Assembly: GCF_037126465.1 (NCBI RefSeq)
Contig: NC_088209.1
Coordinates: forward strand, 1 to 64,000
Direction of reading: 5' to 3'
DNA from: Ornithodoros turicata
Taxonomy: Eukaryota; Arthropoda; Arachnida; Ixodida; Argasidae
DNA: 64,000 nt
Numbering within the stretch: the stretch's first letter is position 1; each line of letters begins with the position of its first letter. Shown here one piece after another: positions 1,521 through 24,040 of this stretch. A model generated the notes under the pieces. It was not told where the DNA came from. It saw nothing but the letters and a program-made list of their open reading frames with translations, and did not search any database. Position numbers and translations under genes: made by a program.

Positions 1521-4500
1521 CATATGTCGAAAGCATGATCGCGCAAAGTTCCTCATGCAGCCATTGTTGCGCGAAATACCGCACACACGCGTGTTTAGAC
1601 CGCACGTCCAAAAAAATCACATATAATTTGAAAACAATGCCATATGTCGAAAGCGTAAACATGCAAAGTTCCTGAGGCAGCCACTGTTGCGCGAAATACC
1701 GCATACACACGTGTTTAGTCCGCACGTACAAAATAAAAAGAATCACCTATAATTTGAAAACAATGCAATATGTCGAAAGCATAAACATGAAAAGTTCCTC
1801 AGGTGGCCACTGTTGCGCGACATACCGAATCACCCGTGTTTAGTCCGCACGTACAAAAAAAAGAATCACCTATATATTTTGAAAATAATGCCATATGTCG
1901 AAATCATAAAGATGCAACGTTTCTCACGCAGCCACTGTTGCGCGAAATACATCATACACGCGTGTTTAGTGCGAACGTACAAAATAAAAAGAATCACCTA
2001 TATGTTGAAAATAATGCCACATGTCGAAAGTATACACATGCAAAGTTCCTTTGACAGCCTCTGTTGCGCGAAATAGCGCATACACGCGTGTTTAGTCCGC
2101 ACGTACAAAATAAAAAGAATCACCTATATGTTTAAAGTAATGCCATAAGTCGAAAGCATAAACATGCAAAATTCCTCAGGCAGCCTCTGCTGCATGAAAT
2201 ACCGCATACACGCGTGTTTAGACCGCACGTACAAAAAAAAAGAATCACCTATAATTTGAAAATAATGCCATATGTCGAAAGCGTAAACATGCAAACTTCC
2301 TCAGGCAGTCACTGTTGCGCGAAATACCGCATACACGCGTGTTTAGTCTGCACGTACAAAATAAAAAAATCACCTATAATTTGAAAATAATGGCTTATGT
2401 CGAATGTGTAAACATGCAAAGTGTCTCAGGCAGCCACTGTTGCGTGAAATACCGCATACACGCTTGTTTAGTCTGCATGTACAAAATAAAAAGAATCACC
2501 TATAATTTGAAAATAATGCCACATGTCGAAAGCACAATCCTGCAAAGTTCCTCAGGCAGCATCTGTTGCGCGAAATACCGCATACACGCGAGTTTATTCC
2601 GCGCGTACAAGATAAAAAGAATCACCTGTAATTTGAAAATAATGCCATAAGTCGAAAGATAAACACGTAAAATTCCTCATGCAGCCATTGTTGCGCCAAA
2701 TACCGCAAACACACGTGTTTAGACCGCACGTACAAAAAAAATCACATACTTTGAAAATATTGCCATATGTGGAAAGCGTAAACATACAAAGTTCCTCAGG
2801 CAGCCACTGTTGCGTAAAATACCGCATACACGCGTGTTTAGTCCGCACGTACAAAATAAAAATAATCACAAATAATTTGAAAATAATGCCCTATGTCGAA
2901 AGCGTAATCATGAAAGTTCCTCAGGCAGCGACTGTTTTGCGATATACCGGGTACACGCGAACTTAGTCCGCACGTACAAAATAAAAATGATGACCTATAA
3001 TTTGAAAATAATGGCTTATGTCGAAAGCATAAACATGCAAAGTTCCTTAGGCAGCTTCTGGTGTGCGAAATACCGCATACACGCGTGTTTAGTCCGCACG
3101 TACAAAATAAAAAGAATCACCTATAATTTGAAAATAATGCCTTATGTTGAAAGCGTAAACATGCAAAGTTCTTCAGGCAGCCACTCTTGAGAGAAATACC
3201 ACACACACGCGTGTTTAGTCCGTATGTACAAAGTAAAAATAATCACCAATACGTTGAAAATATTGCCATATGTGGAAAGCGTAAACATGCAAAGTTCCTC
3301 AGGCAGCCACTGTTGCAAAAATACCGCATACACGCGTGTTAGTCCGCACCTACAAAATAAAAATAATCACAAATAATTTGAAAATAATGCCATATGTCGA
3401 AAGCATAATCATGAAAGTTCCTCAGGCAGCGACTGTTTTGCGATATACCGGGTACACGCGAACTTACTCCGCACGTAAAAAATAAAAATGATGACCTATA
3501 ATTTGAAAATAATGGCTTATGTCGAAAGCATAAACATGCAAAGTTCCTCAGGCAGCCTCTGTTCCGCGAAATACTGCATACACGCGTGTTTAGTCCGCAC
3601 CTACAAAATAAAAAGAATCACCTATAATTTGAAAATAATGCCTTATGTCGAAAGCATAAACATGAAAAGTTCCTCTTGCAGCCACTGTTACGCGAAATAC
3701 AGCATACACGTGTGTTTAGTCCGCACGTACAAAAAAAGAAAGAAAGAAAGAATCACCTATAATTTGAAAATAATGGCTTATGTCGAAAGCGTAAACATGC
3801 AAAGTTCCTCAGGCAACCACTGTTGCACGAAATACCGCATACACGCGAGTTTAGTCCGCAAGTACAAAATAAAAATAATCACCTATAATTTGAAAATAAT
3901 GGCTTATGTCGAAAGTGTAAACAGGCAAAGTTCCTCAGGCAGCCACTGTTGCGTGAAATACCGCATACACGCGAGTTTAGTCCGCAAGTACAAAATAAAA
4001 ATAATCACCTATAATTTGAAAATAATGGCTTATGTCGAAAGTGTAAACAGGCAAAGTTCCTCAGGCAGCCACTGTTGCGTGAAATACCGCATGCACGCGT
4101 GTTTAGTCTGCATGTACAAAATAAAAGAATCACCTATAATTTGGAAATAATGTCACATGTCGAAAGCATCAACATGCAAAATTCCTGAGGCACCCACTGT
4201 TGCGCGAGATACCGCACACACACGTGTTTAGTCCGCACGTACGAAATAAAAAGAACCACCTATAATTTGAAAATAATGCCATATGTCGAAAGCATAAACA
4301 TGCAAATTTCCTCAGGCAGCCACTGTTGAGCCAAATACCGCATACACGTGTGGTTAGTCCGCACGTACAAAATAAAAAGAATCACCTATAATTTGAAAAT
4401 AATTCCTTATGTTGAAAGCATAAACAGGCAAAGTTCCTCAGGCACCCACTGTTGCACGAAATACCGCATACACGCCAGTTTAGTCCGCACGTACAAAATA

Positions 4501-4595
4501 AAAATGATCACCTATAATTTGAAAATAATGCCGTATGCCGAAAGCATAATCATGAAAGTTCCTCAGGCAGCGACTGTTTTGCGATATACCGGGTA

Positions 4596-4601
4596 CACGC
4601 G
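4596..4601. other. Target-site duplication, left (CACGCG)
   Basis: CACGCG lies directly outside the left end of the palindromic element and again directly outside its right end at 18448-18453. Uninterrupted monomers of the same subtype (for example near 2950 and 18953) read TACACGCGAACTTAG with one copy only, so the second copy arose on insertion. Counting one more base gives a 7-bp duplication CACGCGA and slightly uneven ends, so 6 or 7 bp cannot be fully separated. Confidence 0.85.
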
Positions 4602-4614
4602 AGTAGTAATGTAA

Positions 4615-4787
4615 CAACCCAAGATTTACACAGAAAATCCACGGCAAGTATTGCACATTTTACTTTAAATTATTTTAAAATTACTTTAAAATTTTTTAAA
4701 AAATTTAAATTTTTAAAATTTTGAAATTTGGCAAAATCTGACTCAGTGCAATACTTGTCGTGGATTTTCTATGTAAAACTCGGGTTG
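4615..4787. repeat. Terminal sub-hairpin, left end
   Basis: Inside the outer terminus is a smaller inverted repeat. The ~42-bp segment 4615-4656 (CAACCC...ATTGCAC) pairs with 4746-4787 (GTGCAATAC...GGGTTG) with a few mismatches. The loop of ~90 bp is extremely A+T-rich. The element end could therefore fold on itself without the opposite arm. Confidence 0.85.
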
Positions 4788-5087
4788 TAGGAAATAAAAA
4801 ACTAGATAGAAAGGAAGCAGACAGTAGGAAATGATTTATTTGAAAATCAACGACGCCATCTTGAAGAAATCACGCCGGGGCGACTGGAGCACGACGGTTG
4901 CAGAGGCAGGTGGCACGCTAGTTCCAAGGCATCACACCAGATGGCGCCAGCATCGTAGCTCTATACGAGAAACACAGAGAACAAGAAAGTACTAGCGACA
5001 CGTAAAAATGGCAACACTGCTCGACAAGTCTAACCATGCCAGAGCGCGGGGAAAAGGCCTAACCGCTACTGCTAAACAGCACGGAGA

Positions 5088-5369
5088 AAACACTACACAA
5101 TGGGGGAAAAGGCTTAAGGCAATCGACTAGGCCTAACCACAGCGTCACAACACTTCGCGGCTAACACAAGGCGGGAACCACACGATGGTAAACGTGCGTC
5201 AACAGGCTTGGACACCGCTAAACAAGTTAAACACTACACAATGGGGGAAAAGGCTTAAGGCAATCGACTAGGCCTAACCACAGCGTCACAACACTTCGCG
5301 GCTAACACAAGGCGGGAACCACACGATGGCAAACGTGCGTCAACAGGCTTGGACACCGCTAAACAAGTC
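5088..5369. repeat. 141-bp tandem duplication (left arm)
   Basis: Two copies, 5088-5228 and 5229-5369, start with CACTACACAATGGGGGAAAA and share the whole 141 bp with about one visible difference (GGTAAACG versus GGCAAACG). The mirror copy is at 17681-17962. Confidence 0.85.
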
Positions 5370-5628
5370 TAAACATGCGAGAAAAGGCTTAACACGAGCA
5401 CGGTAAAACAACGCGCAAACATCGGTAAATCACTCACCTTTTTCCCCGCTGCGACGGAGCGTCCGCTCTCGTCGACAGCCAGGGATCAAGTGACGACGGA
5501 GCGAACGACCGCACGTCTTCTCCCAACAAGAGCCAGAGGTGGACTGACGTAAGCGCCACTCTACGGGTGCTACGCATGCGCGCGCTCCTACCGCCACCTG
5601 CGAGAGGCTAAGAGAGAAGAGCATTCCT

Positions 5629-5642
5629 GCGCCCCCTGCTGG
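5629..5642 (-). promoter_or_regulatory. CTCF-like motif (left arm)
   Basis: On the minus strand this reads CCAGCAGGGGGCGC, a full match to the CCASYAGRKGGCRS core bound by CTCF in animals. It lies beside a CCAAT box (minus strand ATTGG at 5651-5655 on the plus strand). The mirror site is 17408-17421, so the two motifs point away from each other. Confidence 0.5.
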
Positions 5643-7240
5643 CCGTTCTCATTGGTCCAGACATCATCCTATTGTCTCAGGGCTACACTGTTTTTTTTCC
5701 ACTAATGCTCCTCTAGACAAGGTCAATCTGCAGTGAAGCCACGGTATGACGTCCTCATGCACCTGCGTGGCTCAAGGACGCGTGCGCTCTAGACAGGGGA
5801 CCTATTATTTATTGAATCACTATCCCAAGGTTATTTCCTTTATTCTTCTATAACGATTGCATAGGAAACTATTGCAGAAGAGCACCATGCATGAAAGCTG
5901 ATCGTAGGAATTCCAAAGTCTTACTAAATGAGACTTGCAAAAGAACAAAATATCCCAACATGTAACCCCATCAACGGCTAATAAGAGGACTAGGCACTCA
6001 ACAAACCAACGCGCGCAGAACTCAGGGCAGCACTATCGTCAAGACGACAATGTTCCTTGTCAAAAAAGACAAAATACAAAGCGTTAACAAAGGAAACCAT
6101 GCATATCGGGGCATGTCAGGACACGTCAGGACAAATTCGCACGACTGTTGGGCAACAGAGGAAAACGAACACTTGAACAGAGTGAAAAGACGCTCACTAT
6201 CATCGGACACGTACACTACATTCCCTCATTGTAAATCCGCTCGTCACAAAATCCACCTGCATCGTCGAACACCATTCACCAGTGACGAACCACACATCCG
6301 CACCCCATCAGAGGCAGACAGAACCCCACCTAAGCTACGCTCTTCTACTGACGATCAACGCAATTGCCAGGATCATAATTACCGTGTCTACATCCACCAG
6401 TGTCCAAGAGAGAAGTGAATCCTTGCGTCCCCTGCAGGCCAGTCTCATTGGTCCAGACATCATCCTATTGTCTCAGGGCTACACAGTTCTTTTCCACTAA
6501 TGCTCCTCTAGACAAGGTCAACCTGAAACAATAGTCTCTCGGTATGCGGTCATCATGCAGGTGCGTGGCTCAAGGACGCGTACGCTCTAGACAGGGCACC
6601 TGTTATTTATTGAATCACTATCCCTAGATTATTTCCTTTATTCTACTATAATGATTGCGTAGGGAACTATTGAGAAAAACACCATAGACAAGAGGAGATT
6701 GTAGCATTTCATTCCCAAAGTCTTACTGTACAGGAAAAAAAAAAGGTTCAGCAAGACATAAAGTCACACACCTGTCCCCCTCGCGGTTACTCTCTGAACT
6801 AAATGAATCGCAAAATTATTAAGAACTGCTCTACTCCCATTCAAGGCAGCACTATCGTCAAGAATATGCCTTGTACAAAAGGAAAAAAACTACATGCAGA
6901 AGGAAAGCATGTCAGAACAAGCCCAGGCATGTCAGCACATGTTTGTCAGACAAGGGGGGAAAAAGCGAAAAGAAACAAAGAAGGAAACCAGCATCAAACT
7001 ATTTCTTCTTATTCAAAAACAGTGCTCATCATAAATCTGCCCAGGACAATACACACTATTTTTCTATTGCCACACTTTTTTCCAGTAACGGTCAATGCAT
7101 TGCTACAGACTGCGTGACGTCATCACATCCTGTCTGAAGAAGAAGACACCGGCAAAGACTCCTATTATTTATTGAATCGCAAGATTATTTCCTTTGTCCT
7201 ACTCTTAATGACATTGATTCTCTCATTAAAATTCAACAAA
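5640..7240. repeat. ~797-bp direct repeats (left arm)
   Basis: Two diverged copies of a ~797-bp unit. CATTGGTCCAGACATCATCC occurs at 5650 and 6446, GCTCCTCTAGACAAGGTCAA near 5706 and 6503, and TATTATTTATTGAATCACTA-like blocks near 5805 and 6602, with a third partial copy near 7163. The mirror lies at about 15810-17410. Confidence 0.75.
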
Positions 7241-7756
7241 AAGCACCCCGCATATTAACGATTTTCACCCCAAAGGCTCATCATGGTCATTAGAATTACA
7301 GTAAACTGCCACTGCTCTTTTAAAATAATAAGTGAGACCACTCAACATCACCTCCAGGCTTATGTAATACATGACCCTTTCTATGCTCATACATTCGTTG
7401 TCTGAGGCTACACCTGCGAGCAAAAAAGGCGCGGAAGCCGGGTGGGCAAAGTTCCATTCGCGCATTGCGAGCAAAAAGGCGCGAAAGCACAAGACAGAAC
7501 GCCTTTACGGGAACACGATGGCATTCCTATACTATATTAATGATTATTGCATTGCAGTTTAGAAAAACTACAACTAAACTATAATTTTAGGAGCCCAACT
7601 TTCTATGGAAACTATAATTGCCCTATTACTTGGATCGCTACTAATGAAGCGCTCCAATTTTTTCTCTCTTCCCATTTCAGCCTTGTCATGCAGGGAAGCA
7701 GACTCATATCCAAAATAATTAATTTACACAGAGGGTGCCGTGCTTCAGGAATTCCT

Positions 7757-10600
7757 ATCCTGCGCTCAGATGCAAGCATTTCTTCACGGATACCTTTAAC
7801 AGCTGACTTCCTCAACATATCGAACACCCAACAAAATCAAACAAACAATCAGAGAAACCCTCTTCTCAGCTGCACCATGCGACTTTCTTCTGCGTAAAAT
7901 CGGTGATTTGAAGAAGAGAGCAGCGAAAAATTGCGCGCGCTTGTGCTCGACCTGAAGCATATGCCAATAAACCAAGAAAAAGGCACTCATGTCTGGTATC
8001 TGATAGTGCCACATACACAGACGCATTGTCGCAAAGAAAGCACAGGACACGGATACACAAATTTCCTTAGGTGAGCAGGGAAAAGGCTTAAGACCACAGG
8101 TCACGACACATCGCCACGCGGCTAGCACAACATGACACCAACAAGATACTATAGCGGGAAGAACTGCTACACTGCTAAACAAGTCCAGACATGCCACGAT
8201 GGCGTCACAAATCAGGAAGAAAAAAAAAACAAAAAGAAAAAAAAGCACACGCACGCACAGAGGACAACGCATTAAACACACGGAGCGCTCAGGAATAATC
8301 GTAGCGTCACCGCACATCGCTACGAAGCTAAACGTCTAACACAAGACGACACCAACAAGATATTAGCGAAGGGTAAAAATTGCAACACTACCGAACAAGT
8401 GCAGACATGCGACATCGCATACAAAACACTGCTCATCGGGGAAAAGGCCTAAGCCTGCGGCGGATCATCATAGAGCGTACACAACTTCATTTTTTCTATT
8501 TTGCGTAAACTAAACGCGGTCTGCTTGGAAAACGACGTACAAATTTTCTTAAGGAGCAGAGAAATATTTCTACTCCGTGCTCAGATACCAGCATTTCTGC
8601 TCAAAAACCTGCAAAATTAAACACTGCTTACTTCGTCAAGATATCGAACAAAATCAAACAAACAACTCCACTTCCACTGGTAGAACACTATTCAGCTTTT
8701 ACGCAGGAGGCTTTCTTCTACATAAAAAGTAAAGCAAATAAGAAAAGAGCAGCGAAATATTACACGCACATTTGCTTGACTTAAAAAACCTGAAGCATAT
8801 GCCAATAAACCAAGAAAAAGACACTCATGTCTGGTATCTGATAGTGCCACATACACAGACGCATTGTCCTTGCGTAAAGAAAGCACAGGACAGGGATACA
8901 CAAATTTCCTTAGGTGAGCAGGGAAAAGGCTGAAGACCTCAGGTCACCACACATCGCCACGCGGCTAGCACAACATGACAGCAACAAGATACTAGCAGCG
9001 GGAAGAACTGCAACACTGCTAAACAAGTCCAGACATGCCACGATGACGTCACAAATCAGAAGAAAAAAAAGCACACGCATGCACGCACAGAGGACAACGC
9101 ATTAAACACACGGAGCGCTCAGGAATAATCGTAGCGTTACCGCACATCGCTACGAAGCTCAACGTCCAACACAAGACGACGGCAACAACAAGATATTAAC
9201 GAAGGGTAAAAATTGCAACACTGAACAAGTCCAGACATGCGACATCGCATACAAAACACTGCTCATCGGGGAAAAGGCCTAAGCCTGCGGCGGATCATCA
9301 TAGAGCATACACAACTTCATTTTTATATTTTGCGTAAACTAAACGCGGTCTGCTTGGAAGACGACGTACAAATTTTCTTAGGGAGCAGAGAAATATAGAA
9401 ATTTGTACTCCGTGCTCAGATACCAGCATTTCTGCTCAAAAACCTGCAAAATTAAGCTCTGCTTACTTCGTTAAGATATCGAACAAAATCAAACAAACAA
9501 CCCCACTTCCACTGGTAGAACACTATTCAGCTTTTACGTAGGAGGCTTTCTTCTACATAAAAAGTAGAGAAAATAAGAAAAGAGCAGCGAAATATTACAC
9601 GCACTTTTGCTCGCATAGCTATAAGAGAAAAAAATAAATAAAATAACAACGCACACGCTAATAAACTGTGACAAAGACACCCATTTCTCCGATCAGATAA
9701 TTATTGCATAATGCTATATACTCATTTGCATTGGCCCTGCGTGAAGAAACCACAGGACAGGGATACACAATCTATCTTAAGCGAGCACGGAAAGTCACTT
9801 CTACTCGAACAGCTTAATACCATAAAGTCTGAATTTTTGCAAAGAAAATAGAGCCTGAACAGCGCTACGAAGGTGACAGACACATACTAACAAACAAACA
9901 AACACTTCTTCGAGTCTGTATTATCTTTTAAAAAATAACGAAAGCACACATAAAAAAAAAATCAAATCGGCTAGGTAGCCTTCCAGACGTTGTGCCTTAA
10001 AGTTGGCTGCACGCAATGTGCGGAAGCATGCTGTGAAGCCAATTTGCGGTTTTGCTGGATGCACATGAAGTCCGATTCCAATTGGAAATCGCGCTAAGGA
10101 CGTGCCAAACGTGGAATTTTCGCAAGATTAATCCCAATACCTGGAATTCTATTCATTTTAGCGGGAATGCTGGCGCTTGTGCTCCATTATTCGAAATTTT
10201 CGAATATTCGAATTTCTCGATTATCAAATTTTCGAATACGAATAGGGTTCGAATATCAACAATATTCAAACAATATTCGAAAGTTCGAATATTCGCACAC
10301 CTCTAGTGAATACTGACACTCAACGATATATAACAAAAAACAAACAAATTCCATTCTCATGAACTCTCCTCTGCCGAGCGGCTTTCTCCTGCTCTACCTG
10401 GATGCTGACTTTTTCCCCCCTCACCTACATTCTGAGTAAAAACAGTGACAGAAGAAAAGAACCGCGAAAAATTACACGCATTTGTGTCACAGGACAGGGA
10501 TACACAAATTTCCTTAAGTGAGCAGGGAAAAGGCTTAAGTCGGTACCGCTCAGGAATAATCGGAGAATCACCGCGTATCGCTACGCGGCTAGCACTTGAA
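7757..10600. repeat. ~830-bp tandem array (left arm)
   Basis: Recurrent blocks CTCAGATACCAGCATTTCTG (near 8579 and 9416, related copy near 7763), GCATATGCCAATAAACCAAG (7959, 8797) and GGATACACAAATTTCCTTAG (8051, 8894, related at 10499) mark two full and two partial copies of a ~816-843-bp unit. The short motif GGGAAAAGGC followed by CTAA or TTAA recurs here and in the 141-bp repeats, suggesting common descent of the arrays. Confidence 0.75.
10185..10310. repeat. TTCGAATATTCG-rich stretch (left arm)
   Basis: Short, imperfect palindromic words built on TTCGAA and AATATT repeat for about 100 bp and end in GCACACCTCTAGTG. On the minus strand this reads CACTAGAGGTGTGCGAATAT, resembling the TAGAGGTGTGC ends of hAT-type DNA transposons. 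I do not see the matching opposite end, so this may be a relic. The mirror is at about 12741-12866. Confidence 0.5.
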
Positions 10601-11481
10601 CAGCGCTACGAACGTGACAGATACATACTAACAAACAAACAAACAACAGCAGGACCGGCGTCGGGCACTCATAAAATACCCTGCCCAAAACAAAGACTTC
10701 GCCAGGTTCGCGAGGCAATTCCATCAAAAACGCTCGTCCTATCCTACAGATAGCAATGCAAACGCGACTGCCCTTATTTTTTAAACCACTATTTCACGCA
10801 ATAGTACATAAATGTATCACTCGTGTCACACGAAAAGGCAAACACTTACTTGTCAAGTGGGGTCCCAGCGCGTGCGCGCGCGCACACACACTAACATTTT
10901 CACACTCACAAACACAAAGTCTATTTTCACAACCACATAAATCCATATTATTTATCAGGTCAATAATTATCCTACCATCGCCAAAAGACGGTACAGACAT
11001 GTATGCTTACGCAAGACAATCGGTCCTCGTTCCGGATGTAATAGGATATCGCCACTCGGCCGGCGCGAACCAATAAAGAAAGAAAGGAATGCATGTTCGC
11101 TACGAAGAAAACGGTGCCGTGCTTCTACGCAGCGATCATTATACAGACGCGTAAATGTGAACATCATTCGCTACACACTGTAGCTCCCATCATTTTTAAA
11201 CCAAACCGTGTTCATAGGTCTTCACTAAATAGGTGAGCCGATAATGACTCCAAATAAAATCAAATCAAATAATCATTCCAGCATCGCTGGCTGCAAGCTT
11301 GGGTACCCAACAGAGCAGCGCGCTCCCATCAACACGCCTTGGGCTGACCTTACACACCCGAAGCCTTTTCTGAATACATTCTGCAGGCGCTGGAATAAAA
11401 GATTTATCGCGAGGGTACTACGATGTCAGCTCTGTTGCTGTTTAAGTGATAAAACAGTGCGCCCGAACCGCGAAGCGCGCG

Positions 11482-11566
11482 TCCAAACCGCGAAAACGGG
11501 TCCGCGTTGCGCTCGCGCCGCGGGGAATCGCGCGCGTCGCGAGTCCAAACCGCGAGACCGGGTCCG
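11482..11566. other. CpG-rich spacer at palindrome centre
   Basis: The 85-bp unpaired centre is very rich in CpG and contains a direct repeat of GTCCAAACCGCGA...CGGGTCCGCG (11481-11506 and 11543-11568) that overlaps the arm tips. It is unlike the AT-richer arms. It breaks perfect dyad symmetry and would form the loop of a cruciform. Confidence 0.85.
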
Positions 11567-14500
11567 CGCGCGCTTCGCGGTTCGGGCGCACTGTTTTATC
11601 ACTTAAACAGCAACAGAGCTGACATCGTAGTACCCTCGCGATAAATCTTTTATTCCAGCGCCTGCAGAATGTATTCAGAAAAGGCTTCGGGTGTGTAAGG
11701 TCAGCCCAAGGCGTGTTGATGGGAGCGCGCTGCTCTGTTGGGTACCCAAGCTTGCAGCCAGCGATGCTGGAATGATTATTTGATTTGATTTTATTTGGAG
11801 TCATTATCGGCTCACCTATTTAGTGAAGACCTATGAACACGGTTTGGTTTAAAAATGATGAGAGCTACAGTGTGTAGCGAATGATGTTCACATTTACGCG
11901 TCTGTATAATGATCGCTGCGTAGAAGCACGGCACCGTTTTCTTCGTAGCGAACATGCATTCCTTTCTTTCTTTATTGGTTCGCGCCGGCCGAGTGGCGAT
12001 ATCCTATTACATCCGGAACGAGGACCGATTGTCTTGCGTAAGCATACATGTCTGTACCGTCTTTTGGCGATGGTAGGATAATTATTGACCTGATAAATAA
12101 TATGGATTTATGTGGTTGTGAAAATAGACTTTGTGTTTGTGAGTGTGAAAATGTTAGTGTGTGTGCGCGCGCGCACGCGCTGGGACCCCACTTGACAAGT
12201 AAGTGTTTGCCTTTTCGTGTGACACGAGTGATACATTTATGTACTATTGCGTGAAATAGTGGTTTAAAAAATAAGAGCAGTCGCGTTTGCATTGCTATCT
12301 GTAGGATAGGACGAGCGTTTTTGATGGAATTGCCTCGCGAACCTGGCGAAGTCTTTGTTTTGGGCAGGGTATTTTATGAGTGCCCGACGCCGGTCCTGCT
12401 GTTGTTTGTTTGTTTGTTAGTATGTATCTGTCACGTTCGTAGCGCTGTTCAAGTGCTAGCCGCGTAGCGATACGCGGTGATTCTCCGATTATTCCTGAGC
12501 GGTACCGACTTAAGCCTTTTCCCTGCTCACTTAAGGAAATTTGTGTATCCCTGTCCTGTGACACAAATGCGTGTAATTTTTCGCGGTTCTTTTCTTCTGT
12601 CACTGTTTTTACTCAGAATGTAGGTGAGGGGGGAAAAAGTCAGCATCCAGGTAGAGCAGGAGAAAGCCGCTCGGCAGAGGAGAGTTCATGAGAATGGAAT
12701 TTGTTTGTTTTTTGTTATATATCGTTGAGTGTCAGTATTCACTAGAGGTGTGCGAATATTCGAACTTTCGAATATTGTTTGAATATTGTTGATATTCGAA
12801 CCCTATTCGTATTCGAAAATTTGATAATCGAGAAATTCGAATATTCGAAAATTTAGAATAATGGAGCACAAGCGCCAGCATTCCCGCTAAAATGAATAGA
12901 ATTCCAGGTATTGGGATTAATCTTGCGAAAATTCCACGTTTGGCACGTCCTTAGCGCGATTTCCAATTGGAATCGGACTTCATGTGCATCCAGCAAAACC
13001 GCAAATTGGCTTCACAGCATGCTTCCGCACATTGCGTGCAGCCAACTTTAAGGCACAACGTCTGGAAGGCTACCTAGCCGATTTGATTTTTTTTTTATGT
13101 GTGCTTTCGTTATTTTTTAAAAGATAATACAGACTCGAAGAAGTGTTTGTTTGTTTGTTAGTATGTGTCTGTCACCTTCGTAGCGCTGTTCAGGCTTTAT
13201 TTTCTTTGCAAAAATTCAGACTTTATGGTATTAAGCTGTTCGAGTAGAAGTGACTTTCCGTGCTCGCTTAAGATAGATTGTGTATCCCTGTCCTGTGGTT
13301 TCTTCACGCAGGGCCAATGCAAATGAGTATATAGCATTATGCAATAATTATCTGATCGGAGAAATGGGTGTCTTTGTCACAGTTTATTAGCGTGTGCGTT
13401 GTTATTTTATTTATTTTTTTCTCTTATAGCTATGCGAGCAAAAGTGCGTGTAATATTTCGCTGCTCTTTTCTTATTTTCTCTACTTTTTATGTAGAAGAA
13501 AGCCTCCTACGTAAAAGCTGAATAGTGTTCTACCAGTGGAAGTGGGGTTGTTTGTTTGATTTTGTTCGATATCTTAACGAAGTAAGCAGAGCTTAATTTT
13601 GCAGGTTTTTGAGCAGAAATGCTGGTATCTGAGCACGGAGTACAAATTTCTATATTTCTCTGCTCCCTAAGAAAATTTGTACGTCGTCTTCCAAGCAGAC
13701 CGCGTTTAGTTTACGCAAAATATAAAAATGAAGTTGTGTATGCTCTATGATGATCCGCCGCAGGCTTAGGCCTTTTCCCCGATGAGCAGTGTTTTGTATG
13801 CGATGTCGCATGTCTGGACTTGTTCAGTGTTGCAATTTTTACCCTTCGTTAATATCTTGTTGTTGCCGTCGTCTTGTGTTGGACGTTGAGCTTCGTAGCG
13901 ATGTGCGGTAACGCTACGATTATTCCTGAGCGCTCCGTGTGTTTAATGCGTTGTCCTCTGTGCGTGCATGCGTGTGCTTTTTTTTTCTTCTGATTTGTGA
14001 CGTCATCGTGGCATGTCTGGACTTGTTTAGCAGTGTTGCAGTTCTTCCCGCTGCTAGTATCTTGTTGCTGTCATGTTGTGCTAGCCGCGTGGCGATGTGT
14101 GGTGACCTGAGGTCTTCAGCCTTTTCCCTGCTCACCTAAGGAAATTTGTGTATCCCTGTCCTGTGCTTTCTTTACGCAAGGACAATGCGTCTGTGTATGT
14201 GGCACTATCAGATACCAGACATGAGTGTCTTTTTCTTGGTTTATTGGCATATGCTTCAGGTTTTTTAAGTCAAGCAAATGTGCGTGTAATATTTCGCTGC
14301 TCTTTTCTTATTTGCTTTACTTTTTATGTAGAAGAAAGCCTCCTGCGTAAAAGCTGAATAGTGTTCTACCAGTGGAAGTGGAGTTGTTTGTTTGATTTTG
14401 TTCGATATCTTGACGAAGTAAGCAGTGTTTAATTTTGCAGGTTTTTGAGCAGAAATGCTGGTATCTGAGCACGGAGTAGAAATATTTCTCTGCTCCTTAA

Positions 14501-17395
14501 GAAAATTTGTACGTCGTTTTCCAAGCAGACCGCGTTTAGTTTACGCAAAATAGAAAAAATGAAGTTGTGTACGCTCTATGATGATCCGCCGCAGGCTTAG
14601 GCCTTTTCCCCGATGAGCAGTGTTTTGTATGCGATGTCGCATGTCTGCACTTGTTCGGTAGTGTTGCAATTTTTACCCTTCGCTAATATCTTGTTGGTGT
14701 CGTCTTGTGTTAGACGTTTAGCTTCGTAGCGATGTGCGGTGACGCTACGATTATTCCTGAGCGCTCCGTGTGTTTAATGCGTTGTCCTCTGTGCGTGCGT
14801 GTGCTTTTTTTTCTTTTTGTTTTTTTTTTCTTCCTGATTTGTGACGCCATCGTGGCATGTCTGGACTTGTTTAGCAGTGTAGCAGTTCTTCCCGCTATAG
14901 TATCTTGTTGGTGTCATGTTGTGCTAGCCGCGTGGCGATGTGTCGTGACCTGTGGTCTTAAGCCTTTTCCCTGCTCACCTAAGGAAATTTGTGTATCCGT
15001 GTCCTGTGCTTTCTTTGCGACAATGCGTCTGTGTATGTGGCACTATCAGATACCAGACATGAGTGCCTTTTTCTTGGTTTATTGGCATATGCTTCAGGTC
15101 GAGCACAAGCGCGCGCAATTTTTCGCTGCTCTCTTCTTCAAATCACCGATTTTACGCAGAAGAAAGTCGCATGGTGCAGCTGAGAAGAGGGTTTCTCTGA
15201 TTGTTTGTTTGATTTTGTTGGGTGTTCGATATGTTGAGGAAGTCAGCTGTTAAAGGTATCCGTGAAGAAATGCTTGCATCTGAGCGCAGGATAGGAATTC
15301 CTGAAGCACGGCACCCTCTGTGTAAATTAATTATTTTGGATATGAGTCTGCTTCCCTGCATGACAAGGCTGAAATGGGAAGAGAGAAAAAATTGGAGCGC
15401 TTCATTAGTAGCGATCCAAGTAATAGGGCAATTATAGTTTCCATAGAAAGTTGGGCTCCTAAAATTATAGTTTAGTTGTAGTTTTTCTAAACTGCAATGC
15501 AATAATCATTAATATAGTATAGGAATGCCATCGTGTTCCCGTAAAGGCGTTCTGTCTTGTGCTTTCGCGCCTTTTTGCTCGCAATGCGCGAATGGAACTT
15601 TGCCCACCCGGCTTCCGCGCCTTTTTTGCTCGCAGGTGTAGCCTCAGACAACGAATGTATGAGCATAGAAAGGGTCATGTATTACATAAGCCTGGAGGTG
15701 ATGTTGAGTGGTCTCACTTATTATTTTAAAAGAGCAGTGGCAGTTTACTGTAATTCTAATGACCATGATGAGCCTTTGGGGTGAAAATCGTTAATATGCG
15801 GGGTGCTTTTTGTTGAATTTTAATGAGAGAATCAATGTCATTAAGAGTAGGACAAAGGAAATAATCTTGCGATTCAATAAATAATAGGAGTCTTTGCCGG
15901 TGTCTTCTTCTTCAGACAGGATGTGATGACGTCACGCAGTCTGTAGCAATGCATTGACCGTTACTGGAAAAAAGTGTGGCAATAGAAAAATAGTGTGTAT
16001 TGTCCTGGGCAGATTTATGATGAGCACTGTTTTTGAATAAGAAGAAATAGTTTGATGCTGGTTTCCTTCTTTGTTTCTTTTCGCTTTTTCCCCCCTTGTC
16101 TGACAAACATGTGCTGACATGCCTGGGCTTGTTCTGACATGCTTTCCTTCTGCATGTAGTTTTTTTCCTTTTGTACAAGGCATATTCTTGACGATAGTGC
16201 TGCCTTGAATGGGAGTAGAGCAGTTCTTAATAATTTTGCGATTCATTTAGTTCAGAGAGTAACCGCGAGGGGGACAGGTGTGTGACTTTATGTCTTGCTG
16301 AACCTTTTTTTTTTCCTGTACAGTAAGACTTTGGGAATGAAATGCTACAATCTCATCTTGTCTATGGTGTTTTTCTCCAATAGTTCCCTACGCAATCATT
16401 ATAGTAGAATAAAGGAAATAATCTAGGGATAGTGATTCAATAAATAACAGGTGCCCTGTCTAGAGCGTACGCGTCCTTGAGCCACGCACCTGCATGATGA
16501 CCGCATACCGAGAGACTATTGTTTCAGGTTGACCTTGTCTAGAGGAGCATTAGTGGAAAAGAACTGTGTAGCCCTGAGACAATAGGATGATGTCTGGACC
16601 AATGAGACTGGCCTGCAGGGGACGCAAGGATTCACTTCTCTCTTGGACACTGGTGGATGTAGACACGGTAATTATGATCCTGGCAATTGCGTTGATCGTC
16701 AGTAGAAGAGCGTAGCTTAGGTGGGGTTCTGTCTGCCTCTGATGGGGTGCGGATGTGTGGTTCGTCACTGGTGAATGGTGTTCGACGATGCAGGTGGATT
16801 TTGTGACGAGCGGATTTACAATGAGGGAATGTAGTGTACGTGTCCGATGATAGTGAGCGTCTTTTCACTCTGTTCAAGTGTTCGTTTTCCTCTGTTGCCC
16901 AACAGTCGTGCGAATTTGTCCTGACGTGTCCTGACATGCCCCGATATGCATGGTTTCCTTTGTTAACGCTTTGTATTTTGTCTTTTTTGACAAGGAACAT
17001 TGTCGTCTTGACGATAGTGCTGCCCTGAGTTCTGCGCGCGTTGGTTTGTTGAGTGCCTAGTCCTCTTATTAGCCGTTGATGGGGTTACATGTTGGGATAT
17101 TTTGTTCTTTTGCAAGTCTCATTTAGTAAGACTTTGGAATTCCTACGATCAGCTTTCATGCATGGTGCTCTTCTGCAATAGTTTCCTATGCAATCGTTAT
17201 AGAAGAATAAAGGAAATAACCTTGGGATAGTGATTCAATAAATAATAGGTCCCCTGTCTAGAGCGCACGCGTCCTTGAGCCACGCAGGTGCATGAGGACG
17301 TCATACCGTGGCTTCACTGCAGATTGACCTTGTCTAGAGGAGCATTAGTGGAAAAAAAACAGTGTAGCCCTGAGACAATAGGATGATGTCTGGAC

Positions 17396-18230
17396 CAATG
17401 AGAACGGCCAGCAGGGGGCGCAGGAATGCTCTTCTCTCTTAGCCTCTCGCAGGTGGCGGTAGGAGCGCGCGCATGCGTAGCACCCGTAGAGTGGCGCTTA
17501 CGTCAGTCCACCTCTGGCTCTTGTTGGGAGAAGACGTGCGGTCGTTCGCTCCGTCGTCACTTGATCCCTGGCTGTCGACGAGAGCGGACGCTCCGTCGCA
17601 GCGGGGAAAAAGGTGAGTGATTTACCGATGTTTGCGCGTTGTTTTACCGTGCTCGTGTTAAGCCTTTTCTCGCATGTTTAGACTTGTTTAGCGGTGTCCA
17701 AGCCTGTTGACGCACGTTTGCCATCGTGTGGTTCCCGCCTTGTGTTAGCCGCGAAGTGTTGTGACGCTGTGGTTAGGCCTAGTCGATTGCCTTAAGCCTT
17801 TTCCCCCATTGTGTAGTGTTTAACTTGTTTAGCGGTGTCCAAGCCTGTTGACGCACGTTTACCATCGTGTGGTTCCCGCCTTGTGTTAGCCGCGAAGTGT
17901 TGTGACGCTGTGGTTAGGCCTAGTCGATTGCCTTAAGCCTTTTCCCCCATTGTGTAGTGTTTTCTCCGTGCTGTTTAGCAGTAGCGGTTAGGCCTTTTCC
18001 CCGCGCTCTGGCATGGTTAGACTTGTCGAGCAGTGTTGCCATTTTTACGTGTCGCTAGTACTTTCTTGTTCTCTGTGTTTCTCGTATAGAGCTACGATGC
18101 TGGCGCCATCTGGTGTGATGCCTTGGAACTAGCGTGCCACCTGCCTCTGCAACCGTCGTGCTCCAGTCGCCCCGGCGTGATTTCTTCAAGATGGCGTCGT
18201 TGATTTTCAAATAAATCATTTCCTACTGTC
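17396..18230 (+). ncRNA. Putative outward spliced non-coding transcript (right)
   Basis: A compact set of RNA polymerase II-type signals faces the right end. In order: CCAAT at 17396, a CTCF-like motif (17408-17421), a CpG-rich leader with the CRE-like word TTACGTCA, a strong donor AAAAAG/GTGAGT (17613-17618), an intron of about 475 bp with the 141-bp duplication, a pyrimidine tract and acceptor TCGTATAG (AG at 18088-18089), and a last exon with AAGATGGCG and AATAAA (18210-18215). The predicted exons do not encode a recognisable protein. The same layout is mirrored in the left arm. The signals are seen; expression and splicing are inference. Confidence 0.38.
17408..17421 (+). promoter_or_regulatory. 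CTCF-like motif (right arm)
   Basis: CCAGCAGGGGGCGC matches the animal CTCF core consensus at every position. A weaker relative, CCTGCAGGGGACGC near 16612, sits in the internal repeat copy and has lost key bases. Confidence 0.5.
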
Positions 18231-18262
18231 TGCTTCCTTTCTATCTAGTTTTTTATTTCCTA

Positions 18263-18434
18263 CAACCCGAGTTTTACATAGAAAATCCACGACAAGTATT
18301 GCACTGAGTCAGATTTTGCCAAATTTCAAAATTTTAAAAATTTAAATTTTTTAAAAATTTTAAAGTAATTTTAAAATAATTTAAAGTAAAATGTGCAATA
18401 CTTGCCGTGGATTTTCTGTGTAAATCTTGGGTTG
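18263..18434. repeat. Terminal sub-hairpin, right end
   Basis: Mirror of the left terminal hairpin: CAACCCGAG... (from 18263) pairs with ...CTTGGGTTG (to 18434) around an A+T-rich loop. Confidence 0.85.
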
Positions 18435-18447
18435 TTACATTACTACT

Positions 18448-21400
18448 CACGCGAACTTAGTCCGCACATACAAAATAAAAATGATGACCTATAATTTGAA
18501 AATAATGCCATATGTCGAAAGCATAAACATGCAAAGTTCCTCAGGCACCCACTGTTGCACGAAATACCGCATACACGCGAGTTTAGTCCGCACGTACAAA
18601 ATAAACATAATCACCTATAATTTGAAAATAATGGCTTATGTCGAAAGTGTAAACATGCAAAGTTCCTCAGGCACCCACTGTTGCACAAAATACCGCATAC
18701 ACGCGAGTTTAGTCCGCACGTACAAAATAAAAATGATGACCTATAATTTGAAAATAACGCCATATGTCGAAAGCATAAACATGCAAAGTTCCTCAGGCAC
18801 CCATTGTTGCACGAAGTACCCCATACACGCGAGTTTAGTCCGCACGTACAAACTAAAAATAATCACCTATAATTTGAAAATAATGCCGTATGTCGAAAGC
18901 ATAATCATGAAAGTTCCTCAGGCAGCGACTGTTTTGCGATATACCGGGTACACGCGAACTTAGTCCGCACGTAGAAAATAAAAATGATGACCTATAATTT
19001 GAAAATAATGCCATATGTAGAAAGCATAAACATGCAAAGTTCCTCAGGCACCCACTGTTGCACGAAATACCGCATACACGCGTGCTTAGTCCGCACGTAC
19101 AAAAAAAAGAATCACCTATAATTTGAAAATAATGGCTTATGTCGAAAGCATAAACATGCAAAGTTCCTTAGGCAGCCTCTGTTGTGGGAAATACCGCATA
19201 CACGCGTGTTTAATCAGCACGTACAAAATAAAAAGAATCACCTATATGTTGAAAATAACGCCACATGTCGAAAGCATACACATGCAAATTTCCTTAGGCA
19301 GCCTCTGTTGTGCGAAATACGGCATACACGCGTGTTTAGTCCGCACGTACAAAATAAAAACAACCACCTATAATTTGAAAATAATGCCTAAGTCGAAAGC
19401 ATAAACATGCAAAATTCCTGAGGCACCCACTGTTGCGCGAGATACCGCACACACACGTGTTTAGTCCGCACGTACGAAATAAAAAGAACCACCTATAATT
19501 TGAAAATAATGCCATATGTCGAAAGCACAAACATGCAAATTTCCTCAGGCAGCCACTGTTGAGCCAAATACCGCATACACGCGTGGTTAGTCCGCCACGT
19601 ACAAAATAAAAAGAATCACCTATAATTTGAAAATAATTCCTTATGTTGAAAGCATAAACAGGCAAAGTTCCTCAGGCACCCACTGTTGCACGAAATACCG
19701 CATACACGCGAGTTTAGTCTGCACGTACAAAATAAAAATAATCACCTATAATTTGAAAATAATGCCGTATGCCGAAAGCATAATCATGAAAGTTCCTCAG
19801 GCAGCGACTGTTTTGCGATATACCGGGTACACGCGAACTTAGTCCGCACGTACAAAATAAAAATGATGACCTATAATTTGAAAATAATGCCATATGTCGA
19901 AAGAATAAACATGCAAAGTTCCTCAGGCACCCACTGTTGCACGAAATACCGCATACACGCGAGTTTAGTCCGCACGTACAAAACAAAAATAATCACCTAT
20001 AATTTGAAAATAATGGCTTATGTCGAAAGTGTAAACATGCAAAGTTCCTCAGGCAGCCACTGTTGCGTGAAATACCGCATACACGCGTGTTTAGTCTGCA
20101 TGTACAAAATAAAAATATTCACCTATAATTTGAAAATAATGCCACATGTCGAAAGCATAATCCTGCAAAGTTCCTCAGCCAGCACCTGTTGCGCGAAATA
20201 CCGCATACACGCGAGTTTATTCTCCACGTACAAGGTAAAAAGAAGCACCTATACTTTGAAAATATTGCCATATGTGGAAGGCGTAAACATGCAAAGTTCC
20301 TCAGGCAGCCACTGTTGCGTAAAATACAGCATACACGCGTGTTTAGTCGGCACGTACAAAATAAAAATAATCACAAATAATTTGAAAATAATGCCATAAG
20401 TCGAAAGCATAAACATGCAAAGTTCCTCCGGCAGCCACTGTTGCGTGAAATACCGCATACACGGGTGTTGAGTCCGCACGTACAAAATAAAAATAATCAC
20501 AAATCATTTGAAAACAATGCCATAAGTCGAAAGCGTAAACATGCAAAGTTCTACAGGCAGCCACTCTTGCGTGAAATACCACATACACGCGTGTTTAGTC
20601 CACATGTACAAAATAAAAATAATCACGTATAATTTGAAAATAATGCCGTATGTCGAAAGCATAATCATGAAAGTTCCTCAGGCAGCGACTGTTTTGCGAT
20701 ATACCGGGTACACGCGAACTTAGTCCGCACGTACAAAATAAAAATGATTACCTATAATTTCAATATAATGCCATATGTCGAAAGCATAAACATGCAAAGT
20801 TCCTCAGGCACCCACTGTTGCACGAAATACCGCATACACGCGAGTTTAGTCCGCACGTACAAAATAAAAAGAATCACCTATAATTTGAAAATAATGCCAC
20901 ATGTCGAAAGTGTAATCATGCAAAGTTCCTCAGGCACCCACTGTTGCACGAAATACCGCATACACGCGAGTTTAGTCCACACGTACAAAATAAAAATAAT
21001 CACCTATAATTTGAAAATATTGCCATATGTCGAAAGCATAAACATGCACAGTTCCTCAAGCAGCCACTTTTCCGCGAAATACTGCATACACGCGTGCTTA
21101 GTCCGCACGTATAAAATAAAAAGAATCATCTATAATTTGAAAATAATGCCATATGTCGAAAGCATAAACATGCAAAGTTCCTCAGGCAGCCACTGTTTCG
21201 AGAAATACGGCATACACGCGTGTTTAGTCAGCACGTACAAAATAAAAAAGAATGACCCATAATTTGGAAATTATGCCATATATCGAAAACATAAACATGC
21301 ACAGTTCCTCAAGCAGCCACTGTTCCGCGAAATACCGCATACACGCGTGGTTAGTCCGCACGTACAAAATAAAAAGAATCACCTATAATTTGAAAATAAT

Positions 21401-23855
21401 GCCGTATGTCGAAAGCATAAACATGCAAAGTTCCTCAGACAGGCACTGTTGCGCGAAATACCGCCTACACGCGTGTTTAGTCCGCACGTACAAAATAAAA
21501 AGAATCACCTATAATTTGAAAATAATGCCATATGTCGAAAGCATAAACATGCAAAGTTCCTCAGGCAGGCACTGTTGCGCGAAATACCGCATACACGCAT
21601 GTTTAGTCCGCAGGTACAAAATAAAAAGAATCACCCATAATTTGAAAATAATGCCACATGTCGAAAGCATAAACATGCAAAGTTCGTTAGGCAGCCTCTG
21701 TTGTGCGAAATACCGCATACACGCGTGTTTAGTCCGCACGTACAAAATAAAAAGAATCACCTATATGTTGAAAATAATGCAATAAGTCGAAAGCAGAAAC
21801 ATGCAAAATTCCTGAGGCACCCACTGTTGCGCGAAATACCGCACACACACGTGTTTAGTCCGCACGCACGAAATAAAAAGAACCACCTATAATTTTAAAA
21901 TAATGCCATATGTCGAAAGCATAAACATGCAAATTTCCTCAGGCAGCCACTGTTGAGCCAAATACCGCATACACGAGTGTTTAGTCCGCACGTACAAAAT
22001 AAAAAGAATCACCTATAATTTGAAAATAATGCCTTATGTCGAAAGCATAAACATGAAAACTTCCTCTTGCAGCCACTGTTGCGCGAAATACAGCATACAC
22101 GTGTGTTTAGTCCGCACGTACAAAAAAAGAAAGAAAGAAAGAATCACCTATATGTTGAAAATAATGCCACATGTCGAAAGCATACACATGCAAAGTTCCT
22201 TAGGCAGCATCTGTTGTGCGAAATACCGCATACACTCGTGTTTAGTCCGCACCTACAAAATAAAAAGAACCACCTATCATATGAAAATAATGCCATAAGT
22301 CGAAAGCATAAACATGCAAAATTCCTGAGGCACCCACTGTTGCGCGAAATACCGCATACACGCGTGTTTAGTCCGCACCTACGAAATAAAAAGAAATACC
22401 TATATTTTGAAAATAATGCCATATGTCGAAAGCATAAACATGCAAATTTCCTCAGGCAGCCACTGTTGAGCCAAATACCGCATACATGCGTGTTTAGTCC
22501 GCACGTACAAAAAAAGAAAGAAAGAAAGAATCACCTATAATTTGAAAATAATGGCTTATGTCGAAAGCGTAAACATGCAAAGTTCTTCAGGCAGCCACTC
22601 TTGGGTGAAATACCACATACACGCGTGTTTAGTCCACACGTACAAAATAAAAACAATCACCTATAATTTGAAAATAATGCCATATGTCGAAAGCATAAAC
22701 ATGCAAAGTTACTCAGGCACCCACTGTTGCACGAAATACCGCATAAACGCGAGTTTAGTCCACACGTACAAAATAAAAACAATCACCTATAATTTGAAAA
22801 TATTGCCATATGTGGAAAGCGTAAACATGCAAAGTTCCTCAAGCAGCCACTGCTGCGCGAAATACAGCATACACGCGTGTTTAGAAACACGTACAAAAAA
22901 GAAAGAAAGAAAGAATCACCTATAATTTGAAAATAATGGCTTATGTCGAAAGCGTAAACATGCAAAGTTCCTCCGGCAGCCACTGTTGCGTGAAATACCG
23001 CATACACGCATGTTTAGTGCGCACGTACAAAATAAAAATAATCACAAATCATTTGAAAATAATGCCATATGTCGAAAGCGTAAACATGCAAAGTTCTTCA
23101 GGCAGCCACTCTTGCGTGAAATACCACATACACGCGTGTTTAGTCCGCATGTACAAAATAAAAATAATCACCTGTAATTTGAAAATAATGCCGTATGTCG
23201 AAAGCATAATCATGAAAGTTCCTCAGGCAGCGACTGTTTTGCGATATACCGGGTACATGCGAACTTAGTCCGCACGTACAAAATTAAAATGATGACCTAT
23301 AATTTGAAAATAATGCCATATGTCGAAAGCATAAACATGCAAAGTTCCTCAGGCACCCACTGTTGCACGAAATACCGCATAAACGCGAGTTTAGTCCGCA
23401 CGTACAAAATAAAAACAATCACCTATAATTTGAAAATATTGCCATATGTGGAAAGCGTAAACATGCAAAGTTCCTCAGGCAGCCACTGCTGCGCGAAATA
23501 CAGCATACACGCGTGTTTAGAAACACGTACAAAAAAAGAAAGAAAGAAAGAATCACCTATAATTTGAAAATAATGGCTTATGTCGAAAGCGTAAACATGC
23601 AAAGTTCCTCCGGCAGCCACTGTTGCGTGAAATACCGCATACACGCGTGTTTAGTCCGCACGTACAAAATAAAAATAATCACAAATCATTTGAAAATAAT
23701 GCCATATGTCGAAAGCGTAAACATGCAAAGTTCTTCAGGCAGCCACTCTTGCGTGAAATACCACATACACGCGTGTTTAGTCCGCATGTACAAAATAAAA
23801 ATAATCACGTATAATTTGAAAATAATGCCGTATGTCGAAAGCATAATCATGAAGA
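18448..23855. repeat. 126-bp tandem satellite, block 2a
   Basis: The satellite resumes at the second copy of CACGCG and completes the monomer interrupted at 4601. Subtypes include the GTTTTGCGATATACCGGGTAC monomer and monomers with an inserted GAAAGAAAGAAAG run (for example near 22118, 22510, 22899 and 23528). The block is split by the miniature LTR element at 23856. Confidence 0.97.
22660..23830. repeat. Pentameric higher-order repeat (~637 bp)
   Basis: A series of five monomers at about 22660-23190 recurs at about 23296-23830 with an offset of 636-637 bp and very few differences, including the same GAAA-bearing monomer and the same CTCTTGCGTGAAATACCACA variant. Confidence 0.75.
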
Positions 23856-24027
23856 TGTGGCGGCCCGTGTGTGATGACGAAGACGTGCCTCTGCTGCCAC
23901 GCGCTACGGCGCTGGCACGGCAGTTCTACCGGCACCGTCCTAGCGTGAGGCCACGCACATCATGCCCGCTGGGACATTCCATCATCGCCGGTCAGGACTC
24001 ATGTAGAGGGACACCACCTCCTCTACA
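23856..24027 (+). repeat. 5' LTR of miniature element
   Basis: 172 bp, TG...CA. It differs from the 3' copy only around 23957-23967 (CACGCACATCATGCCC versus CACGACCATCTGCCC). Confidence 0.88.
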
Positions 24028-24029
24028 TT

Positions 24030-24040
24030 TGGTGACCCGA
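24030..24040 (+). other. Primer-binding-site-like sequence
   Basis: TGGTGACCCGA two bases after the 5' LTR. The first nine bases match the type complementary to the 3' end of tRNA-Trp used by some gypsy-group elements; the match then decays. Confidence 0.6.

What the first reader, a model, noticed from the sequence alone, without database searches (positions are those of the whole stretch)
4602..18447. 13.85-kb near-perfect palindromic mobile element in a satellite array
Two 6.88-kb arms, over 99% identical by eye, around an 85-bp centre, with perfect inverted ends (AGTAGTAATG...CATTACTACT) and a 6-bp target duplication. No coding capacity is visible. Known foldback elements usually have shorter, tandem-repeat arms with a larger middle; an element that is almost all inverted repeat at this size is unusual. 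The AG terminus and 6-bp duplication fit Polinton ends, suggesting (inference) a coding-free derivative mobilised by a Polinton integrase.
Basis: partly seen in the sequence, partly recalled or inferred. Interest (0 to 1): 0.9.

Follow-up and report, generated by a model that had tools for sequence, protein, structure and literature searches.

The report
Palindromic non-coding Polinton derivative family
A 13.8-kb stretch of DNA that is almost a perfect mirror image of itself turns out to be one copy of a family of gene-less mobile elements that carry the ends of a virus-like transposon (Polinton), and the two halves of a copy appear to be kept alike as the family spreads.

Summary
Confirmed. 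Window 4602-18447 is a 13,846-bp element: two 6.88-kb arms (99.88% identical), an 85-bp asymmetric centre, 6-bp duplication CACGCG; joining the flanks restores the satellite array. It belongs to a family: the 40 scored places (of 696 candidates) in the 1.07-Gb genome match the centre at 94-100%, and 34 of 40 end pairs examined have identical 6-bp duplications. Its outer ~1 kb is ~97% identical to the terminal repeats of ~15-kb Polintons in the same genome, which encode a viral/organellar-type PolB and an RVE integrase; the inner 5.9 kb matches no gene tested. Arms of one copy are closer to each other than to any other copy in 13 of 18 copies (0 of 20,000 random pairings reach the observed sum). 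Some copies have different ~0.9-1-kb ends, or chimeric ends, in both arms at once; both end types fold into a subterminal hairpin at the same place. Two coding Polintons are fold-backs with the integrase end at both sides. Best reading: a non-autonomous, snapback-type Polinton derivative mobilised in trans, its arms made equal around replication or integration (trans action and hairpin form inferred). My open-library searches listed no palindromic Polinton. New variant of a known kind.

The parts
4596..4601 (.). Left copy of the 6-bp target duplication CACGCG, in the 126-bp satellite array
4602..11481 (+). Left arm, 6,880 bp
4602..5595 (+). Outer ~994 bp, shared at ~97% with the terminal inverted repeat of ~15-kb Polintons in the same genome
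4614..4788 (+). Subterminal imperfect palindrome (arm 13-187): DNA hairpin, -48.4 kcal/mol for the outer 200 bases, z -10.6, starting 12 bp from the tip
5088..5375 (+). Two tandem 141-bp units in the left arm (mirrored at 17675-17962)
5596..11481 (+). Inner part of the left arm, non-coding; not shared with the 15-kb Polintons; no Pfam match above cut-off
7950..9611 (+). Two tandem ~840-bp units, 92% alike, in the left arm (mirrored at 13437-15099); number varies between copies and arms
11482..11566 (.). 85-bp asymmetric GC-rich centre (would be the hairpin loop); the 40 places scored genome-wide with 11400-11650 match at 94-100% over 249-251 bp
11567..18447 (-). Right arm, 6,881 bp, inverted copy of the left arm
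18448..18453 (.). Right copy of the target duplication CACGCG

Best explanation
The element is a member of a large non-autonomous family that carries the termini of a Polinton and descends from one ancestral palindrome. SHOWN: (1) same ends and 6-bp duplications as coding Polintons in this genome; (2) one shared asymmetric centre, so the copies that have it descend from one palindrome rather than forming anew; (3) the two arms of a copy tend to change together, and end types have been exchanged in both arms at once; (4) two coding Polintons are fold-backs in which one end was replaced by an inverted copy of the other; (5) two end types without sequence similarity beyond the tip both fold into a subterminal hairpin at the same position. 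INFERRED: Polinton PolB and integrase act in trans on the ends, with the hairpin as a recognition or origin structure. The element is copied through a single strand that folds into a hairpin with an 85-nt loop, as in snapback defective genomes, so one arm templates the other and a change or new end acquired in one arm appears in both at the next insertion. The integrase joins the linear copy to a new site with a 6-bp stagger. The ancestral palindrome probably arose by the same kind of fold-back error after a Polinton end had been joined to 5.9 kb of non-coding DNA of unknown origin.
For: Ends: outer 994-1000 bp ~97% identical to the TIRs of 15-kb copies, which encode DNA_pol_B_2, rve with a weak chromo match, and a P-loop protein with only sub-threshold Pfam hits. 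Identical 6-bp duplications in 12 of 12 and 22 of 28 pairs, and in 3 of 3 other-end copies whose ends were caught (6 tried). End pattern 163 hits, control 0. Centre: 40 scored places, 94-100% (696 first-look candidates). Arms: own pairing is best of 720 for 6 copies and 0 of 20,000 random pairings reach it for 18 copies; private sites in both arms 49, in one arm 26. End exchange: two copies with the same interior have other ~865-1000-bp ends, alike in both arms, L/R 99.6% and 99.9%, and one of them, C3:50.23, has the same centre; copy C5:38.12 has 268 bp of one end type then the other type in both arms, L/R 99.5%. End type and centre subtype assort: window-end pairs C154 and C1:117.90 have centres 99% and 95% like the window's, other-end pairs C1:122.29 and C1:137.14 have 98% and 95%. 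Hairpins: window end z -10.6, other end z -9.4 and -6.6 in two copies. Fold-backs: C59, 0 substitutions in 4,634 columns; C1:174.76, other breakpoint, 4-bp shared ATTC. Integrase: 110 scored hits at 98% or more, 109 without a stop.
Against: No replication intermediate or transposition was observed. Arm equality could also come from gene conversion after insertion. In 5 of 18 copies an arm is nearer to another copy than to its partner (for C6b an insertion in the compared stretch explains it). For the ~1-kb repeats of the four 15-kb copies the pairing is weak: by identity only C2 has L-R above the best other end, C6a ties, C5 and C1 are below; in the tree C1, C2 and C6a pair and C5 does not. 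The C59 junction has no microhomology, so end-joining of two sister molecules explains it as well as snapback. 6 of 28 pairs lacked matching duplications. For 3 of 6 interior pairs tried, no known tip lay in the fetched 501-bp stretches, so further end types are possible. Part of the window copy's both-arm changes came with its centre subtype, not as separate mutations.
Confidence: 0.72

Rival explanations
1. Arms are kept equal by gene conversion or break repair inside the chromosome after insertion, as in chromosomal palindromes, or by template-switching repair as proposed for Galileo; the Polinton replication cycle plays no part in it.
For: Both-arm private changes and both-arm end exchange are also expected from conversion. 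For Galileo, repair of one TIR from the other by non-allelic recombination is proposed in PMC3573991 (passages seen).
Against: Several palindromic copies keep 1.4-2.1% difference between arms (197.28, 202.40, C2:0.65), and C44 keeps 0.8%, so conversion, if it acts, does not erase all differences. No correlation of L-R difference with distance to the nearest other copy was found (Spearman 0.29, p 0.24), which helps neither side.
Confidence: 0.2
2. The palindrome is an assembly or sequencing fold-back artefact.
For: Fold-back chimeric reads are a known artefact (recalled). Two other pairs (C1:216.56, C4:22.79) have identical outward flanks of at least 40 bp, which could be such an artefact.
Against: Matching 6-bp duplications in 34 of 40 pairs, real differences between the arms, an asymmetric shared centre, and a LINE-like open frame in one arm only of copy C6b.
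Confidence: 0.02
3. It is an independent foldback transposon with its own transposase elsewhere, which merely captured Polinton ends.
For: The inner 5.9 kb is not shared with the coding Polintons. The interior gave 1,880 first-look candidates and the window-type end 871 (queries of 601 and 301 bases, so not strictly comparable). 3 of 6 interior pairs had no known tip in the stretches fetched.
Against: Window-type and other-type ends both bound ~15-kb copies containing the same integrase gene, and duplications are 6 bp as in the Polintons here. The shared AGTAGTAATG tip of the other-end copies was the search key, so it is not independent evidence.
Confidence: 0.06

Closest known systems
Polinton/Maverick transposons (polintoviruses)
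   Same: AG...CT ends and 6-bp duplication (family traits recalled); ~1-kb terminal repeats shared with PolB + integrase copies in the same genome
   Different: No genes; the inverted repeat is nearly the whole element, not ~1 kb at each end of 15 kb
Foldback-type DNA transposons (FB, Galileo)
   Same: Non-autonomous copies made mostly of long inverted repeats with internal tandem units; Galileo copies with the longest TIRs are non-autonomous (PMC3573991, passages)
   Different: Galileo's longest TIR there is 1,260 bp and it is placed in the P-element superfamily; here arms are 6.9 kb and the ends are Polinton ends
Snapback (defective interfering) genomes of AAV
   Same: Self-complementary genomes with one moiety at both sides, symmetric or asymmetric with a loop; they replicate with Rep and helper functions (PMC8235507, passages)
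   Different: Different virus and replication chemistry; here it is a chromosomal family, not a particle population
Adenovirus/phi29-type protein-primed replicons
   Same: Works-like only: the partner Polintons encode a B-family polymerase of the organellar/viral type and have terminal inverted repeats
   Different: No terminal protein or replication product tested here; adenovirus symmetric defective genomes are recalled, not read

Membership tests
Polinton/Maverick (autonomous) | PolB gene in the element | tested here: not met
   No match in the window element; met in a 15-kb partner
Polinton/Maverick (autonomous) | RVE integrase in the element | tested here: not met
   As above; met in a 15-kb partner; the gene has 110 scored places in the genome
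Polinton/Maverick (non-autonomous derivative) | Termini shared with a coding Polinton of the same genome | tested here: met
   Outer 994-1000 bp at ~97%
Polinton/Maverick (non-autonomous derivative) | 6-bp target duplication next to AG...CT ends (trait recalled) | tested here: met
   Window CACGCG; 34 of 40 pairs
Polinton/Maverick (non-autonomous derivative) | Mobilised by Polinton integrase in trans | not testable with these tools
   Inferred from shared ends only
Foldback transposon (structural class) | Very long inverted repeats making up most of the element | tested here: met
   13,761 of 13,846 bp
Foldback transposon, P superfamily (Galileo) | 7-8-bp duplication (recalled) | tested here: not met
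   6-bp duplications
Foldback transposon, P superfamily (Galileo) | P-type transposase in an autonomous partner | not tested
   No search for it was made
MITE | Short element, under about 1 kb (recalled) | tested here: not met
   13.8 kb
Snapback/defective interfering genome | Self-complementary molecule with one parental end at both sides | tested here: met
   C59 and C1:174.76 relative to coding copies; the window family is symmetric, but the parent of its inner 5.9 kb is unknown
Snapback/defective interfering genome | Replicates with, and interferes with, the parent | not testable with these tools

The most novel reading that the evidence does not exclude
Polintons throw off snapback genomes during protein-primed replication, and one such non-coding snapback has become a heritable genomic parasite with at least 40 places carrying its centre. 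It replicates as a hairpin, so each cycle rewrites one arm from the other and spreads newly captured end modules (tip plus hairpin) to both sides: a chromosomal lineage of defective-interfering-type genomes with concerted evolution by replication.
Probability: 0.45. Interest if true: 0.85.

Novelty: new variant of a known kind. Interest (0 to 1): 0.72.

Why it matters
How Polintons copy and move has, to my knowledge (recalled), not been shown directly. A palindrome whose arms and ends change together is a natural record of the copying step, and the coding fold-backs show that such structures still form. If right, it joins foldback transposons with snapback defective viral genomes, and it explains how a gene-less 14-kb palindrome, normally unstable DNA (recalled), can be abundant. 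Two end types with unlike sequence but the same hairpin position point to a structural, not a sequence, signal that could be tested. Such palindromes are also possible sources of double-stranded RNA carrying the Polinton end sequence, and so of silencing (inference).

Tried and rejected
Assembly artefact: rejected as the main reading for the window copy (duplication, arm differences, shared centre); raw reads were not available. Decayed Polinton genes in the arms: no support by tblastn or Pfam. C1:142.53 looked like a polymerase-end palindrome (L/R 98.6%), but one search shows tandem duplication within the repeats and a deletion, so it is not counted. Of six interior pairs whose ends were sought, three gave no tip in the 501-bp stretches. 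Of ten midpoints fetched, three were not at a centre (L113, L116, L117) and one had lost it (L114). A relative of the integrase in IMG/VR: none confirmed. A DNA match of the left half of the element in phage records: none. PDB relatives of three Polinton proteins (polymerase, P-loop, 442-aa): none at the limits used. Capsid and protease genes of the coding copies were not identified. Host: unnamed; a COX1 contig is open only with TGA read through (10 TGA), as in animal mitochondria (recalled); I could not name the species. Literature: ten searches (open-licence PMC only). For the Polinton ones I saw listings with titles and abstract starts (20 of 44, 15 of 40, 13 of 13, 7 of 7 and 1 of 1 papers); none of those listed is, by title and abstract start, about a palindromic or non-autonomous Polinton, and six exact phrases returned 0 papers. 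Subscription papers and Repbase were not searchable.
Full report
Observation. The element at 4602-18447 is 13,846 bp. Its arms (4602-11481 and 11567-18447) are 99.884% identical with 5 mismatches and 3 gap openings, around an 85-bp asymmetric centre. It sits in a 126-bp satellite array with CACGCG on both sides. Joining the flanks with one CACGCG gives a sequence that matches a satellite stretch over all 122 bp with one mismatch, so the insertion is exact.

Family. A 22-bp end pattern with up to 2 mismatches has 79 forward and 84 reverse hits in the 1.07-Gb genome, and its control has none. Eleven further full copies were fetched; with the window copy, 12 of 12 have identical 6-bp duplications. 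Of 28 more end pairs, taken by pairing listed ends by eye (100 of the 163 hits were listed), 22 have identical duplications. The six failures are C1:163.58, C1:216.56, C1:222.29, C4:22.79, and C6:53.70 and C137:0.27, which share flanks with each other and may be mispaired. Another copy, C1:136.73, holds the right arm, the centre and the inner left arm only. The 251-bp stretch around the centre matches at the 40 places that were scored, over 249-251 bp, at 94-100% (696 first-look candidates, so a lower bound).

Link to Polintons. Of the first twelve copies, six are palindromic non-coding copies (the window copy, C44 with a long deletion in one arm, C10, C77, C3, C6b), four are ~15-kb copies with ~1.05-kb inverted repeats, one (C59) is a coding fold-back, and one (C9b) is a 5.5-kb deletion copy. 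The 15-kb copy C2 encodes a 1,280-aa DNA_pol_B_2 protein (E 2.6e-21), a 371-aa rve protein (E 1.4e-9) with a chromo match below cut-off, and a P-loop protein with only sub-threshold Pfam matches; in copy C5 the polymerase frame is interrupted. The palindrome shares with them only the outer 994-1000 bp, at ~97%. The rest of the arm matches none of ten Polinton frames tested (best E 0.40). Among the 28 pairs, 12 have palindrome-type sequence inside both ends and 3 inside one end; 6 are integrase-end/polymerase-end, 1 is integrase-end at both sides, and 6 are other. For those 12, palindromy was checked only in the outer 1.4 kb; three of them were also read at the centre and have it.

Arms change together. 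For six copies over up to 3,966 compared sites, the arms of one copy differ by 0.05-0.83%, and the nearest arm of another copy by 0.40-0.66%; C44 is the exception (0.83% over 970 sites against 0.50%). Own pairing is the best of 720 pairings; sites private to a copy lie in both arms 49 times and in one arm 26 times. For 18 copies over the outer 1.4 kb, 13 have arms closer to each other than to any other copy, and 0 of 20,000 random pairings reach the observed sum; all 18 were kept in the test. The five exceptions are 197.28, 202.40, C2:0.65, C44 and C6b; for C6b an insertion in the compared stretch explains it (outer 850 bp 99.3%). The ~1-kb repeats of the four 15-kb copies pair only weakly (by identity C2 clearly, C6a tied, C5 and C1 not).

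End exchange. Searching the arm interior (6700-7300) gave 41 matches, 40 of them at 99% or more; 13 inverted pairs 7-10 kb apart can be read from the list, the window's included (1,880 first-look candidates). Of six such pairs whose ends I sought, three gave ends, beginning AGTAGTAATGTATCAGCTCAA: only the first 12 bp are shared with the window type; duplications match in 3 of 3. The tip was the search key, so it is not independent; the other three may have further end types. In two read further, the outer ~865-1000 bp do not match the window end apart from a 50-69-bp stretch at 77-80% (to another place in the arm), and the sequence then joins the window arm at ~91%; L/R are 99.6% and 99.9% (the latter with 60 gap columns), while the two copies are 92% alike. 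One of these (L108) and three more interior pairs (L109-L111) have the same centre at ~95%; two are diverged (82-83%), one has lost the centre, three midpoints missed it. C5:38.12 has 268 bp of window-type tip followed by the other type, in both arms, L/R 99.5%. End type and centre subtype assort: centres 98-99% like the window's occur in window-end pairs (C154) and other-end pairs (C1:122.29, C1:182.77), and centres at 94-95% also occur in both (C1:117.90; C1:137.14). So part of the window copy's both-arm changes came with its subtype. The other end type has 360 pattern hits, control 0; among 41 pairs that I could pair from its list, 12 are 15.3-15.7 kb and 13 are 13.4-14.2 kb. The same integrase gene lies inside several ~15.4-kb other-end copies, e.g. 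C3:92.83 and C4:28.95 at 100% rounded identity. So Polintons and palindromes both come with either end type.

Terminal hairpin. The outer 200 bases of the window end fold as single-stranded DNA at -48.4 kcal/mol, z -10.6, with a stem from arm position 13 to 187. The other end type, in two copies, folds at -45.5 (z -9.4) and -40.8 (z -6.6), with stems from 11 or 14 to about 183-186. Unlike sequences with the same hairpin position suggest a structural signal.

Fold-backs caught. C59 follows the coding copy C2 for 8.68 kb and then continues as the inverted left end; its arms show 0 substitutions and 1 gap in 4,634 columns, and the junction shows no microhomology. C1:174.76 has the integrase end at both sides (L/R 97.8% over the outer 1.4 kb) and a different breakpoint with ATTC shared; its structure was read from separate pieces, and 3.7 kb between them was not fetched. 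Convergent integrase pairs at C2:91.90 and C71:0.22 are further candidates by coordinates only.

Mechanism. Shown: shared ends, duplications, one ancestral palindrome, coupled arms, coupled ends, hairpin tips, and Polinton fold-backs. Inferred: PolB and integrase in trans, a hairpin single strand as the copying form, and equalisation of arms at each cycle. Chromosomal conversion is the main rival. The AAV snapback genomes of PMC8235507 (passages) are the closest working analogue, and Galileo (PMC3573991, passages) the closest structural one; PMC6431247 (passages) is my source for the Polinton PolB and integrase. Polinton end and duplication traits are recalled. The open-library listings that I saw show no palindromic Polinton.

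Noticed in passing
window 1-4601 and 18457-36977: 126-bp satellite array at the start of contig C9 (about 37 and 147 units), also reported with 252- and 378-bp periods.
   Followed up: partly
window 54151-58575: 148-bp direct repeats (97%) around minus-strand reverse transcriptase/integrase-like open frames: looks like a Gypsy-type LTR element (motifs recognised by eye).
   Followed up: no
window 46802-48862 and 62097-62921: LINE-like reverse transcriptase/RNase H and endonuclease open frames, judged by eye.
   Followed up: no
window 59270-59343: Weak tRNA match (32.8 bits, E 0.0055), perhaps a SINE.
   Followed up: no
G000:C1:216558531-216577884 and G000:C4:22789285-22805535: Element pairs whose outward flanks are identical for at least 40 bp on both sides, i.e. 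the host flank itself is inverted-duplicated: genuine fold-back of the locus or an assembly fault.
   Followed up: partly
L025:3676-6504: A 943-aa endonuclease/reverse transcriptase frame (Pfam RVT_1, E 1.1e-34) inserted in one arm only of palindromic copy C6b.
   Followed up: partly
G000, integrase hits: 110 scored integrase places at 98% or more identity, 109 without a stop, of 6,240 first-look candidates: a recent, abundant Polinton expansion.
   Followed up: partly
G000:C6:53703543 and G000:C137:272487: Same 40-bp flanks on both contigs: duplicated locus or alternative haplotype.
   Followed up: no
G000:C279: Several COX1 matches with in-frame TGA on a contig other than C379: nuclear copies of mitochondrial DNA or an unresolved mitochondrial contig.
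   Followed up: no
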